A DNA stretch of 64,000 bases, from positions 1 through 64,000 of the forward strand of contig JAECRA010000005.1 of NCBI GenBank assembly GCA_015999985.1, written 5' to 3'. A program made the position numbers and the translations under genes. The notes under the pieces were generated by a model, which worked only from the letters and a program-made list of their open reading frames with translations, had not been told where the DNA came from and did not search any database. The DNA comes from Comamonadaceae bacterium. GTDB lineage: Bacteria > Pseudomonadota > Gammaproteobacteria > Burkholderiales > Burkholderiaceae_C. Positions 146-15,341 of the stretch are shown piece after piece. Position 1 is the first letter of the stretch; every line of letters begins with the position of its first letter.

Positions 146-1675
146 ATGGACTACTTGCTTGCGCTTGACCAAGGCACGACCAGCTCGCGCGCCATCGCTT
201 TCGACTCTCATGGCCGTGTAGCGGCGCTGGCGCAGCGCGAATTCACTCAGCATTTCCCCAAGCCGGGGTGGGTGGAGCATGACGCGGCGGAAATCTGGTC
301 CACGCAACTGGACGTGGCACGAGAATGCCTGCGAAAGCTGGCAGTACAAGTGGGGGCCGAGCCCGGTTCCGTCAAGGTCCGCGCCATAGGCATCACCAAT
401 CAGCGGGAGACCACGGTTCTTTGGGATCGCTCCACAGGGCATCCTGTGGCCCCGGCCATTGTTTGGCAGGACCGCCGCACTACGCCCCGTTGCGAGGCCC
501 TGCGCCTTGCGGGGAAAGCCGGCCTGATTCAGCGCAAGACGGGTTTAGTGCTGGATTCCTATTTCTCTGCCACCAAGCTCGAATGGCTGCTTGACCACGT
601 GCCCGGCGTTCGCGCCCGCGCTGAAGCGGGAGAGCTCGCTTTCGGCACTGTCGACAGCTGGCTGATCTGGAACCTGACGGGTGGGCAAGTTCATGCAACG
701 GACGCCAGCAATGCTTCCCGCACCTTATTGATGAACATACGCTCCCTGCGATGGGACGATGAATTGCTGAGTCTTTTCAACATACCTCGTGCTGTATTGC
801 CTCGCATCGTGCCTTCCAGCGGCATAGTGGGCGAAGTCTTGCCCAAGTGGTTAGGTGAGCCAATTCCGATCGCCGGCGTGGCAGGTGACCAGCAAGCCGC
901 TACATTCGGGCAGGCCTGTTTTGGCACCGGGATGGCCAAAAATACCTACGGTACGGGCTGCTTCATGCTCATGAACACGGGCACGACTGCAGTTACCAGC
1001 CGCAACCGGCTGCTGAGCACCGTGGGCTGGCAAGGCCCTGAAGAGGGCGGCGAACGGCGTACCGCCTACTGCCTGGAAGGATCCGTGTTCATGGCTGGCG
1101 CAACCATTCAGTGGCTGCGCGACGGCCTTGGCATCATAGACAGTGCGGCAGAGGTGGAAGCCTTGGCCGCCAGCGTGCCAGATACCGGTGATGCGTTCCT
1201 GGTGCCTGCTTTTGCGGGCCTGGGCGCGCCGGACTGGGACGGCAGGGCCCGCGGTACCTTGGTGGGGCTGACGCGTGGCACCACGCGCGCGCACATAGCC
1301 CGCGCAGCATTGGAAGCCATTGCGTTGCAGTCCGCTGATTTGTTTGGCGCCATGACGCGCGACGCTGGTATGGCTTTGACCGAATTGCGGGTGGATGGGG
1401 GAGCCAGCCGTAATGATCTGTTGATGCAGATGCAGGCAGACTTCCTGGGCGTACCGGTGGTGCGCCCCAAGATCACGGAAACCACTGCGCTCGGCGCGGC
1501 CTATCTGGCGGGCCTGGCCATTGGTGTGTGGAGCGGCGGGGATGCGATTACGCAGCAGTGGTCGGTAGATCGGCGCTTTGAGCCCGGCCTCACCGAGCCC
1601 GCTCGGCGAGCTCGTCTCGAGCGTTGGCGTGAAGCTGTGGCTAGATCACGTGATTGGGCAGCCGAAACGCCATGA
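146..1675 (+). CDS. glpK: Glycerol kinase
   Basis: This cytoplasmic FGGY-family kinase phosphorylates glycerol to sn-glycerol 3-phosphate with ATP, the entry step of glycerol catabolism. The 509-residue product has the usual family length. The N-terminal nucleotide-binding loop reads [12 protein letters not shown], and [13 protein letters not shown] and the C-terminal [12 protein letters not shown] are typical of the second actin-like lobe. The ATG at 146 gives the standard N-terminus, although no clear Shine-Dalgarno sequence precedes it. glpD follows 108 bases downstream on the same strand, so the two enzymes of the pathway are probably co-transcribed. No glpF or glpR is visible in the window. 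A 12-bp inverted repeat (CTCGT-TT-ACGAG, 9-20) in the upstream region could be an operator, but this is a guess. Confidence 0.97.
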
Positions 1676-12705: not shown

Positions 12706-12782
<77 letters not shown>

Positions 12783-12786
12783 AATT

Positions 12787-12818
12787 AAAAAGCCCGCTGA
12801 ACACAGCGGGCTTTTTTT
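12787..12818 (+). terminator. Intrinsic terminator after tRNA-fMet
   Basis: AGCCCGCTG (12791-12799) pairs perfectly with CAGCGGGCT (12804-12812) around the loop AACA. Five A residues precede the stem and a run of T (12812-12818) follows, so it could act in both directions. Confidence 0.9.
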
Positions 12819-13087
12819 ATGCCCGTTCGCAAATCAAGAATGTAAGGCGGACGATCGGTCATAGTTCAAGCACGGAGCTAGGGCTGCATGACGTGCAGCG
12901 CAAGCACTGAGAGCGCTCCGGAGGGCTGATTTCAAAACAGCTTAGTCGCGACGAATTCGTCAGCTCGACCATTGCTGCGCAGGAACAGTGTGAGTACCTA
13001 TGGCCAGATAGGACAGGGGGCCATGTAAAGGTATCGCTGCGTAAAGAAGCATCAAGATTTTCATGCCGGACCGTAGAATACAAATAG

Positions 13088-13103
13088 CTGGTTATTTGTA
13101 CAG
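13088..13103 (+). promoter_or_regulatory. Putative LexA (SOS) box upstream of the radical SAM gene
   Basis: CTGGTTATTTGTACAG has the CTG-N10-CAG spacing of proteobacterial LexA sites. The right half (TACAGTA) is perfect and the left half differs from CTGT by one base. It lies 48 bases before the start at 13152, just downstream of a possible -10 TAGAAT (13074-13079). The rest of the 333-base stretch from 12819 to 13151 shows no convincing gene or other signal. Confidence 0.55.
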
Positions 13104-13151
13104 TACCTTGCCCATGGATTCACGGGTGAGCTACCTCTGGTTCAACACATC

Positions 13152-14474
13152 ATGGAAATACCTCAGAAGCTCAGCATCTTGGCTGATGCAGCCAAATACG
13201 ACGCTAGTTGCGCCTCCAGTGGGGTGAAGAATCGCGACTCAGTTGGCGGTCGTGGTATGGGGTCCGCCAACGGCTCCGGTATCTGCCATAGCTACACACC
13301 AGATGGGCGGTGCGTATCTTTGTTGAAGATCCTGCTCACCAATTTCTGCGTCTATGACTGCCAGTATTGCATCAATCGCAAGAGTTCCAATGTGCGACGG
13401 GCACGCTTCGATGTGGACGAAGTGGTGCAGATCACGCTCGATTTCTATCGTCGCAATTTGATCGAGGGCTTGTTCCTCTCGAGCGGCATTATTCAGAGCG
13501 CCAATTACACAATGGAGCAGCTCGTGCGGGTAGCGAAGGACTTGCGCGAGGTGCACGATTTTCGTGGCTACATTCATCTCAAGGCCATCCCCGAAGCGTC
13601 GCCCGAGATGCTCGCGCAGGCAGGCTTGTACGCAGACCGCCTCAGCATCAACATAGAGCTACCTACTCAGGGGAGCCTCGAAAAGCTCGCGCCTGAAAAG
13701 TCGCTTGCGACGATTCATCATTCGATGGGTGAGATTGCCAGCAAAGTGCAAGAGAGCGTGATGGAAAGGGCCGCTAGCCAAGACCGCGCCCGATCGCTAC
13801 CGGGGGGGCGTGGGGTTCGCAGGGCCGCTGTGCCTCGGTTTGCGCCGGGCGGACAAAGTACTCAGCTCATCGTGGGTGCAGATGCCAGCGACGACAGCCA
13901 AATCCTGCAGGTCAGCTCCAATCTCTACGCCAGCCATCAATTGCGCCGAGTCTATTATTCGGCGTTCAGTCCCATTCCTGAAAGCCCGAGCATGCTTCCG
14001 CTGGGCCAGCCACAGATGATGCGTGAGCACAGGCTCTACCAGGCGGACTGGCTGCTTAGAAACTATGGTTTCGCCGTGTCAGAAATCGGCGCAAGCCTGC
14101 GAAATGGCATGCTGGACCTGGAGCTTGACCCCAAGTTGGCATGGGCCCTTCAGCAACGCCATCGGTTTCCGGTGAATTTAAATACCGCGTCGCGAGAAGA
14201 CATCTTGCGTGTACCCGGCCTGGGAGCCAAGTCGGTCGATGTACTTCTTCGTGCGCGCCGATCCCGCTCCCTGCGCCTGGGCGATCTGGCCAAGCTTAGG
14301 ATTCGTTTGGACAAGGTTCGTCCCTTTGTCGAAGTGGCCGATCATCATCCCCACACCACGTTGGAAGACCCGCAACTTCGCTCGCGGCTCTTAATGGCTC
14401 AAACGGCCAGTCGGGCAGCCCTCAAACATGCAGGTTTGCAGGTGGAATCCGGTTCGCAGGCAAGCCTCTTCTAA
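13152..14474 (+). CDS. Radical SAM protein linked to DNA repair (TIGR03916-like)
   Basis: The 440-residue product has the radical SAM cysteine motif CVYDCQYC (C66, C70, C73), which binds the 4Fe-4S cluster that cleaves S-adenosylmethionine. A helix-hairpin-helix segment near residues 340-368 (NLNTASREDILRVPGLGAKS) suggests contact with DNA. This architecture matches the family described as a putative DNA modification/repair radical SAM protein found next to uracil-DNA-glycosylase-like genes. Its substrate is not known to me. The next gene, 24 bases downstream, is the usual DUF4130 partner. A LexA-like box upstream suggests induction by DNA damage. No strong ribosome-binding site precedes the ATG. 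Confidence 0.88.
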   Translation: MEIPQKLSILADAAKYDASCASSGVKNRDSVGGRGMGSANGSGICHSYTPDGRCVSLLKILLTNFCVYDCQYCINRKSSNVRRARFDVDEVVQITLDFYRRNLIEGLFLSSGIIQSANYTMEQLVRVAKDLREVHDFRGYIHLKAIPEASPEMLAQAGLYADRLSINIELPTQGSLEKLAPEKSLATIHHSMGEIASKVQESVMERAASQDRARSLPGGRGVRRAAVPRFAPGGQSTQLIVGADASDDSQILQVSSNLYASHQLRRVYYSAFSPIPESPSMLPLGQPQMMREHRLYQADWLLRNYGFAVSEIGASLRNGMLDLELDPKLAWALQQRHRFPVNLNTASREDILRVPGLGAKSVDVLLRARRSRSLRLGDLAKLRIRLDKVRPFVEVADHHPHTTLEDPQLRSRLLMAQTASRAALKHAGLQVESGSQASLF

Positions 14475-14498
14475 TTCGCCCACAGCAATTCGCTCAGC

Positions 14499-15341
14499 AT
14501 GAAACAGTGGACGATTGAACTGCCATCTAGCGATGATTGGGAGGCTTTCAGGCAAGCTGCCCGCCATTTGCTGACCTGTCACGTTCCATGGGACACAATC
14601 CACTGGACCTACCCTGGCAGAGATAAATCTGACGCATCAGCATCTTTGTTATTGGACGATGGCATACAGCCAGCCATTGCTGCGGAGCGGCTGGTCGATT
14701 ATTTTCCTGCGCAAGATGGACTACGCAACGGAGGGGAGCCAGGTGCGGACTCTCCTTTGCGAATTCCGCGCAGCGCAATGGATGTCTGCGCCTGCGCGAG
14801 CCTCCACGAACACCCGCACAGGTATGAACTTATCTACCGTTGGCTGCAAAAGTGCCGACTTGGAGAAATCGACGCGATAGATGCGCTGGATGCCGATTGG
14901 CGCCGCATTGAAAAAATGAAGATCGCGGTAGCGCATGAAATTCACAGAATGCATGCGTTTGTGCGATTTCAGCCGCTGCAGCGCGGCGAAGGCCTACCGG
15001 ATCTGCATGTGGCCTGGTTTGAGCCAGACCATCACATCATCAGGGCGGTCGCTCCATTTTTCATCAAGAGATTTCCCAATATGCACTGGATGATTCTGGC
15101 GCCGGAATTGGGCCTGCACTGGAACACCAGCGAACTGACCGAATCCACCGGTAATACCCAGGCATCACTGCCGGCGCCCGATGCAGGCGCAGAGCTTTGG
15201 CTGGCCTACTACCGCAGCACCTTCAACCCGAACCGTCTAAAAGCTTCAGCGTTGGCCCAGAAAATGCCACGACGCTATTGGAAAAATCTTCCCGAAGCTG
15301 CGTTGATCGAAGGCTTGATTCACGGGGCCGAGCGGCAGTGA
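14499..15341 (+). CDS. DUF4130 / TIGR03915-family DNA metabolism protein
   Basis: This 280-residue protein belongs to the family that accompanies the radical SAM repair protein. Its segments AHEIHRMHAFVRFQ (about residues 146-159) and AYYRSTFNPNRLKASAL with PRRYWKNLPEA near the C-terminus are the conserved blocks. In many genomes this domain is fused to a uracil-DNA glycosylase-like domain, but here it ends where that domain would start and no glycosylase gene follows. It lies 24 bases after the radical SAM gene, so the pair is almost certainly one operon. Its biochemical function is unknown; a DNA-repair role is inferred from context. Confidence 0.85.
   Translation: MKQWTIELPSSDDWEAFRQAARHLLTCHVPWDTIHWTYPGRDKSDASASLLLDDGIQPAIAAERLVDYFPAQDGLRNGGEPGADSPLRIPRSAMDVCACASLHEHPHRYELIYRWLQKCRLGEIDAIDALDADWRRIEKMKIAVAHEIHRMHAFVRFQPLQRGEGLPDLHVAWFEPDHHIIRAVAPFFIKRFPNMHWMILAPELGLHWNTSELTESTGNTQASLPAPDAGAELWLAYYRSTFNPNRLKASALAQKMPRRYWKNLPEAALIEGLIHGAERQ

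What the first reader, a model, noticed from the sequence alone, without database searches (positions are those of the whole stretch)
13074..15341. LexA-like box in front of a radical SAM / DUF4130 DNA-repair pair
The sequence CTG-N10-CAG at 13088-13103 lies close to a possible -10 and 48 bases before an operon of a radical SAM protein with a helix-hairpin-helix and its DUF4130 partner. The family has been linked to DNA repair only by context with uracil-DNA glycosylases. An SOS box would give direct evidence that the pair is part of the damage response. The left half-site has one mismatch, so this is a prediction.
Basis: partly seen in the sequence, partly recalled or inferred. Interest (0 to 1): 0.75.

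Follow-up and report, generated by a model that had tools for sequence, protein, structure and literature searches.

The report
SOS switch before radical-SAM repair genes
A two-gene operon of unknown chemistry (a radical SAM enzyme and its DUF4130 partner) carries a conserved binding site for LexA, the switch of the bacterial DNA-damage response, which makes it very probably a damage-induced repair system rather than one guessed only from its neighbours.

Summary
The box is real and almost certainly a LexA operator. CTGGTTATTTGTACAG lies at 13088-13103, 48 bases before the start codon. By the E. coli-type consensus it is unremarkable (15 one-mismatch hits in the window, 22 expected). The "mismatch" CTGG, however, is this family's usual half-site: G stands there in 40 of 51 lexA-promoter sites. 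With that matrix the box is the window's best site, 21.8 bits against 9.8 for the next. Of 81 family loci, 78 have such a site, against 2 of 810 shuffles. Other classes carry the alphaproteobacterial LexA motif instead (50 of 52 named, 32 of 32 unnamed loci). One genome has switched motif at both lexA and this operon. SOS control of a UDG-COG4277 operon is already reported for Bacteroidetes, Verrucomicrobia and Alphaproteobacteria (PMC8565304, passages), so this is a new member of a known kind. New to me: a C-terminal motif (QxxLF type) like the sliding-clamp motif in 190 of 215 relatives, and a different palindrome before the operon in 7 of 9 Xanthomonadales-like loci. LexA binding and induction remain untested.

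The parts
13088..13103 (.). LexA operator (SOS box) CTGGTTATTTGTACAG
   Evidence: best LexA-matrix site in the 64 kb window; site of at least 10 bits at 78 of 81 family loci
13079..13100 (.). perfect inverted repeat TACAAATA-N6-TATTTGTA overlapping the box; probably incidental
   Evidence: 8 of 200 shuffles have such a repeat; best match at a family locus has 2 mismatches (L065), all others 5 or more
13152..14474 (+). radical SAM protein, TIGR03916 (440 aa)
   Evidence: 546 bits, cut-off 343.5; AlphaFold2 mean pLDDT 85.9, Foldseek matches radical SAM proteins
13347..13370 (+). CX3CX2C (C66, C70, C73) for the SAM [4Fe-4S] cluster
   Evidence: invariant in the 59-sequence alignment, as are C20, C45, H46 and C54
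14175..14249 (+). helix-hairpin-helix segment, residues 342-366
   Evidence: Pfam HHH 19.8 bits, below cut-off 24; weak profile matches to ComEA-like and RuvA chains, E 0.02-0.2
14457..14471 (+). C-terminal QASLF, like the beta sliding clamp binding motif (name recalled)
   Evidence: Q..L[FWYLI] in the last 25 residues of 190 of 215 proteins, against 5.1% of shuffled tails and 27 of 3278 internal 25-residue segments; Q436 invariant in 59 of 59
14499..15341 (+). DUF4130 / TIGR03915 partner protein (280 aa), without the UdgX domain that many relatives carry
   Evidence: 176.4 bits, cut-off 112.25; no UDG match in the window protein, whereas 4 of 4 long relatives tested have TIGR03914; a DUF4130 relative was found at 219 of 220 loci

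Best explanation
The box at 13088-13103 is a LexA operator. LexA holds down the radical SAM/DUF4130 operon until DNA damage activates RecA and LexA cleaves itself; the operon is then expressed with the rest of the SOS response. Shown here by sequence: match to the group's LexA motif, conservation at orthologous operons, the alphaproteobacterial LexA motif in its place in other classes, and one case of co-switching with the lexA promoter. Inferred: LexA binding and induction. The proteins most likely form a damage-processing pair: a radical SAM enzyme with a probable HhH DNA-binding segment is docked on the beta sliding clamp by its C-terminal QxxLF motif, at replication gaps or forks, and works with DUF4130, which in many relatives is fused to the uracil-trapping UdgX domain. 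The chemical lesion is not known; a radical-based change of a damaged base or sugar is my guess.
For: Family LexA motif from 51 lexA-promoter sites is CTGG-N8-ACAG-like. The box is the window's best site. 78 of 81 family loci have a site of at least 10 bits, against 1 of 643 same-size segments within and after the genes and 2 of 810 dinucleotide shuffles. Mean information is 1.45 bits per base in the 78 boxes against 0.11 and 0.27 in the flanks, so this is not mere relatedness. GTTC-N7-GTTC or its complement lies before 50 of 52 named loci assigned to Alphaproteobacteria and 32 of 32 unnamed loci of other classes; Pseudomonas 5 of 5 and named Burkholderiales 12 of 14 have CTGT-N8-ACAG. In genus g86, G407 has GGTGT-N8-ACACC at its lexA promoter and at this operon, and the pattern occurs at 3 places in its genome. 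G113 and G288 have no lexA over the cut-off; G113 has no box and G288's gene is in pieces with a stop. In the own genome, other hits of the pattern (up to 1 mismatch) lie before lexA, a PA0069-family radical SAM gene, an AlkB-type 2OG-Fe(II) oxygenase gene and parE. Clamp-like tail. UdgX fusion.
Against: No binding or expression data. The scan finds no sigma-70-type promoter by the box. Three of 81 family loci lack it: L005 (no lexA in that genome), L018 (switched motif) and L050 (second copy in G002). Of nine further family loci two lack it (L149, and L142 with the broken gene). Other losses: L152, L174, L184, L194, L208, L201 and L111. Nine of nine Xanthomonadales-like loci have neither CTGT-N8-ACAG nor GTTC-N7-GTTC nor the TTAG-N6-TACTA motif that three of their lexA promoters carry. 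Half of the eight other own-genome hits of the pattern lie near genes without a tie to SOS known to me. The clamp motif is short, lies in a low-confidence part of the model and its name is recalled; 25 of 215 tails lack even the Q..L[FWYLI] form. DUF4130 has no confident structural relative.
Confidence: 0.88

Rival explanations
1. Chance match in an AT-rich stretch; the operon is not under LexA.
For: With the plain E. coli consensus the window has fewer hits than expected (15 against 22); no consensus promoter is seen.
Against: 78 of 81 family loci against 2 of 810 shuffles; box conserved, flanks not; motif switched together with that of the lexA promoter in one genome.
Confidence: 0.03
2. The operator is real but mainly serves another repressor (a LexA-like phage repressor, or a regulator using the overlapping inverted repeat TACAAATA-N6-TATTTGTA), so induction need not follow the SOS response.
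For: A perfect 8-base inverted repeat overlaps the box at 13079-13100; seven Xanthomonadales-like loci have an unrelated palindrome at this place.
Against: The inverted repeat is not shared by the family loci except for one 2-mismatch match, while the LexA-type box is.
Confidence: 0.05
3. LexA does control the operon, but the pair is not a repair enzyme: for example a damage-induced defence against mobile DNA, or a modifier of nucleotides or RNA.
For: No activity is known to me for either protein; the best structural matches of the radical SAM part are metabolic, protein- or RNA-modifying enzymes (AprD4, MgmA, HydE, MiaB).
Against: Fusion of DUF4130 to UdgX, which acts on uracil in DNA (PMC10359453, start of abstract and discussion passages), the HhH segment and the clamp-like tail point to chromosomal DNA at replication.
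Confidence: 0.12

Closest known systems
COG1573-COG4277 SOS operon of Bacteroidetes, Verrucomicrobia and Alphaproteobacteria (PMC8565304, passages seen)
   Same: Same gene pair in essence (UDG-containing partner plus COG4277; the equation COG4277 = TIGR03916 is recalled) under the clade's LexA motif.
   Different: Here the host is a Burkholderiales bacterium with a CTGG-N8-ACAG-type motif, and the partner has DUF4130 but no UDG domain.
splB genes under LexA in alpha- and betaproteobacteria (PMC3323433, passages seen) and PA0069-family radical SAM genes
   Same: Radical SAM protein behind a LexA-type box; the own genome has a PA0069-family gene behind CTGGTTATTTATACAG, one base different from the box here.
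   Different: Different family: the window protein matches only TIGR03916 in NCBIfam, not NF033668, and has the HhH segment, extra invariant cysteines and clamp-like tail.
UdgX (TIGR03914), uracil-DNA glycosylase that crosslinks itself to DNA (PMC10359453, start of abstract and passages)
   Same: Fused to the DUF4130 partner in 4 of 4 long relatives tested.
   Different: Absent from the window's partner; the own genome has only a sub-threshold match elsewhere (82.6 bits, cut-off 189.95; assembly 79% complete).

Membership tests
LexA/SOS regulon | site matching the LexA motif of the same group | tested here: met
LexA/SOS regulon | site conserved before orthologues beyond chance and beyond flanking relatedness | tested here: met
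   78 of 81; 2 of 810 shuffles; box 1.45 against flanks 0.11 and 0.27 bits
LexA/SOS regulon | site follows the presence and specificity of LexA | tested here: met
   one genus of three genomes and the alphaproteobacterial motif in other classes; nine Xanthomonadales-like loci are an exception
LexA/SOS regulon | genome encodes LexA | tested here: met
   one lexA, 228.1 bits, with two boxes before it
LexA/SOS regulon | LexA binding and damage induction | not testable with these tools
   needs ChIP or gel shift and RNA after mitomycin C
TIGR03916 radical SAM | score over curated cut-off and CX3CX2C | tested here: met
   546 bits, cut-off 343.5; C66, C70, C73 invariant in 59 sequences
TIGR03915 / DUF4130 | score over curated cut-off | tested here: met
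   176.4 bits, cut-off 112.25; Pfam 122.7, cut-off 27
UdgX (TIGR03914) | UDG domain in the partner | tested here: not met
   only TIGR03915 and DUF4130 match the window protein
SplB / PA0069 radical SAM | match to NF033668 | tested here: not met
   only TIGR03916 is reported for the window protein
beta-clamp binding proteins | QL[SD]LF-like motif (recalled) in a flexible tail | tested here: met
   QASLF at residues 436-440; Q..L[FWYLI] in 190 of 215 proteins; low-confidence tail
beta-clamp binding proteins | physical binding to DnaN | not testable with these tools
   no complex prediction or binding assay available

The most novel reading that the evidence does not exclude
The pair is a core SOS effector across Proteobacteria: a radical SAM enzyme tethered to the sliding clamp that processes damaged DNA at replication gaps, with UdgX as an optional uracil-trapping module. 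In Xanthomonadaceae it has been handed to a second damage regulator that is not the canonical LexA and reads TCTCA-N5-TGAGA, shared with uvrA.
Probability: 0.4. Interest if true: 0.8.

Novelty: new member of a known kind. Interest (0 to 1): 0.6.

Why it matters
The TIGR03916/TIGR03915 pair is widespread and, as far as I found, without known activity. Placing it under LexA-type operators in most proteobacterial groups sampled, with the operator following LexA's specificity in the cases tested, makes it a test object for DNA-damage biology rather than a context guess. The clamp-like tail says where to look (replication gaps and forks), and the optional UdgX fusion says with what partner.

Tried and rejected
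The plain CTGT-N8-ACAG scan was useless as evidence; a matrix from lexA promoters replaced it. A consensus promoter at the box was not found. The inverted repeat at 13079-13100 was considered as a separate operator and set aside. A sequence search of solved structures gave no confident relative for the radical SAM protein (best E 0.023); for DUF4130 the strong matches (UdgX and other uracil-DNA glycosylases) fall in the fused UDG domain of relatives in the alignment, and the fold search had no match at E <= 0.001 (best 8a8k, E 0.047). For SOS control of this pair in Betaproteobacteria, the 2012 study (PMC3323433, passages only) speaks of splB and two hypothetical genes, with no hit for 'uracil', 'radical SAM' or 'helix-hairpin-helix'; one of its two hypothetical genes could still be a member under another name. 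Paper searches for UdgX with radical SAM, clamp-binding motif with radical SAM, and PA0069 with LexA found nothing. [quoted passage not shown]). Two papers cited for Verrucomicrobia and Caulobacter are not held. A recent Caulobacter SOS paper (PMC12700426, find only) has no hit for uracil, glycosylase or radical SAM in its main text.

Full report
What is there. The window lies in contig C77 of a 4.3 Mb assembly (78.95% complete). After the tRNA-Met gene at 12706-12782 and a 13-pair hairpin at 12787-12816 (listed for the - strand; on the + strand its 3' arm ends in a run of T) come the box at 13088-13103, a TIGR03916 radical SAM gene at 13152-14474 and a TIGR03915/DUF4130 gene at 14499-15341.

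Is the box more than chance? With the E. coli consensus, no: 15 hits with at most one mismatch against 22.3 expected. The right yardstick is the LexA motif of the group. lexA was searched in 36 genomes that hold the radical SAM gene; 35 had it, and 30 lexA loci were examined. All 30 have at least one site with 7 or 8 of the 8 half-site letters in the 250 bases before the gene, 22 of 30 have two or more, and 29 of 30 have at least one with the half-site CTGG. The matrix from 51 of these sites has G at the fourth position in 40 of 51. The window genome's own lexA has two such boxes. On this matrix the finding's box is the best site of the window on either strand (18.1 bits; next elsewhere 6.0). 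With the own lexA sites left out and the matrix symmetrised it has 21.8 bits (next 9.8), and no site in 5 Mb of random sequence reaches it.

Orthologues. TIGR03916 was found in 89 of 399 family genomes, 86 over the cut-off, and in 9 of 29 of the genus. I fetched 80 loci (77, with both copies of G002, and 3) and with the window scored 81: 78 have a site of at least 10 bits within 300 bases upstream, against 1 of 643 segments of equal size taken within and after the genes and 2 of 810 dinucleotide shuffles of the same upstream stretches. The remaining nine family genomes were fetched; by the simpler half-site pattern 7 of these 9 have a box, the exceptions being L149 and L142 (G288, broken gene). 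The 78 boxes hold 1.45 bits per base on average against 0.11 and 0.27 in the 30-base flanks. Thus the conservation is of the operator, not of the region.

Exceptions. The three misses among the 81 are L005 (-10.9 bits), L018 (-1.6) and L050 (1.8). L005 (G113) and L018 (G407) belong to genus g86. G113 and its sister G288 have no lexA over the cut-off, both genomes being 99% complete (G113 has only a match at E 0.2, G288 none); G288's radical SAM gene is in pieces with an internal stop. G407 has a lexA (194.3 bits). Its lexA promoter carries GGTGTAATAATTTACACC directly before the start, and its radical SAM operon carries GGTGTATATTTTTACACC. The pattern GGTGT-N8-ACACC occurs at three places in that whole genome: these two and one G+C-rich site. 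Operator and repressor promoter have changed together. This is one genus, hence one event. L050 is a second copy in G002; the first copy (L009) has the box.

Other clades. In 32 of 32 unnamed loci of other classes of the phylum, and in 50 of 52 named loci that I assigned to Alphaproteobacteria by record title, GTTC-N7-GTTC or its complement lies within 200 bases upstream; 0.0 and 0.35 are expected from shuffles. That this is the alphaproteobacterial LexA motif is stated in PMC8565304 (introduction passage). One of the 52, L251, is titled only 'Proteobacteria bacterium', so placing it there leans on its box. Pseudomonas has CTGT-N8-ACAG in 5 of 5, named Burkholderiales in 12 of 14 (missing L174, L184), and a mixed unnamed set of family, order and class in 21 of 25 (missing L149, L152, L160, L165; this set includes 8 of the nine family loci). 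One of two Verrucomicrobia has GTTC-N4-GAAC (motif recalled). L111, of the same class, has none. None of nine Xanthomonadales-like loci has either motif (7 named, plus L160 and L165). The loci were the 30 best scorers and those were 20 chosen by me; of 84 genomes over the cut-off, 6 were in hand from the family set, 50 were fetched, and 28 were not examined. The 80 named loci are the best of 595 candidates, a capped list. Some named loci appear to be the same contigs as unnamed ones (L205 and L068, L186 and L080).

Own regulon. CTGKWTWWWWNTACAG with at most one mismatch occurs at 8 places in the own assembly besides the window's box (backwards control 2 strand hits against 11). Four are before genes with a tie to SOS that I know of: the lexA promoter; a site 20 bases before a PA0069-family radical SAM gene (446.5 bits, cut-off 360); one 38 bases before an AlkB-type 2OG-Fe(II) oxygenase gene; and one 34 bases before parE (537.1 bits to TIGR01055, under its cut-off of 723 because the gene is cut by the locus end), where a methyltransferase-like gene starts on the other side. 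The other four (a GFA-domain gene at 26 bases, a fumarate hydratase-like gene, and two short ORFs without a family) have no such tie.

The proteins. In 59 radical SAM sequences (of 60 picked for diversity; L148 was left out), C66, C70 and C73 of the CX3CX2C motif are invariant, and so are C20, C45, H46 and C54. The model is confident (mean pLDDT 85.9) except residues 21-53, the stretch between C20 and C54, and the tail 421-440. A second iron-sulphur or metal site is a guess. Fold search returns radical SAM proteins such as AprD4, MgmA, HydE and MiaB. The very end is Q-x-x-L-F or a close variant: Q..L[FWYLI] in the last 25 residues of 190 of 215 proteins (5 of 220 were dropped for odd length), against 5.1% of shuffled tails and 27 of 3278 internal segments; the stricter Q..L[FWY] is in 158 of 215 against 1.3% and 23 of 3278. 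I recognise the beta-clamp binding motif QL[SD]LF from memory. A DUF4130 relative lies at 219 of 220 loci (the other, L060, is cut by its contig end). The partner is about 280 residues, as here, or about 480, with a UdgX-type domain after DUF4130 (4 of 4 tested). Twelve positions are invariant in 52 partner sequences, but the fold has no confident relative.

What is known. PMC8565304 (passages) reports the COG1573-COG4277 operon as part of the SOS network in Bacteroidetes and cites Verrucomicrobia and Alphaproteobacteria papers, which are not held. PMC3765255 (passage) ties DUF4130 to SplB-like radical SAM proteins and uracil-DNA glycosylases. PMC3323433 (passages) predicts splB but, by my search terms, does not name this pair in Betaproteobacteria. 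So SOS control of the pair is known elsewhere; the Burkholderiales and Pseudomonas cases, the motif co-switch, the clamp-like tail and the Xanthomonadales palindrome did not turn up in what I could search, most subscription papers not being held.

Verdict. It is a new member of a known kind, with two leads (clamp docking, second regulator) that go further.

Noticed in passing
L160, L165, L173, L176, L190, L204, L225 (38 bases before the radical SAM start): These Xanthomonadaceae-like loci have a palindrome TCTCA-N5-TGAGA at the same place (7 of 9 Xanthomonadales-like loci, not L206 Luteibacter and L210 Rhodanobacter; 0 of 211 other loci). A second damage regulator is possible; the uvrA site could also serve rplU.
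   Followed up: partly
window 14457-14471, and the radical SAM proteins of 190 of 215 loci: C-terminal QxxLF-type motif like that of sliding-clamp binding proteins.
   Followed up: yes
L280, 20 bases before the gene at 368-1480 (-): A box one base different from the window's (CTGGTTATTTATACAG) lies before a PA0069-family radical SAM gene in the own genome.
   Followed up: partly
L050 (G002 second copy): Second TIGR03916 copy without box and with an off-motif tail, on a contig that also holds a partial LexA-family match below the cut-off; perhaps on a mobile element.
   Followed up: no
family loci with the box ending at the start codon, e.g. L076, L080: In 30 of 78 family boxes the operator runs into the start codon inferred from the alignment, which suggests very short or leaderless transcripts, or other true starts.
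   Followed up: no
window 13079-13100: Perfect 8-base inverted repeat overlapping the box, not shared by the family loci except a 2-mismatch match in L065.
   Followed up: yes
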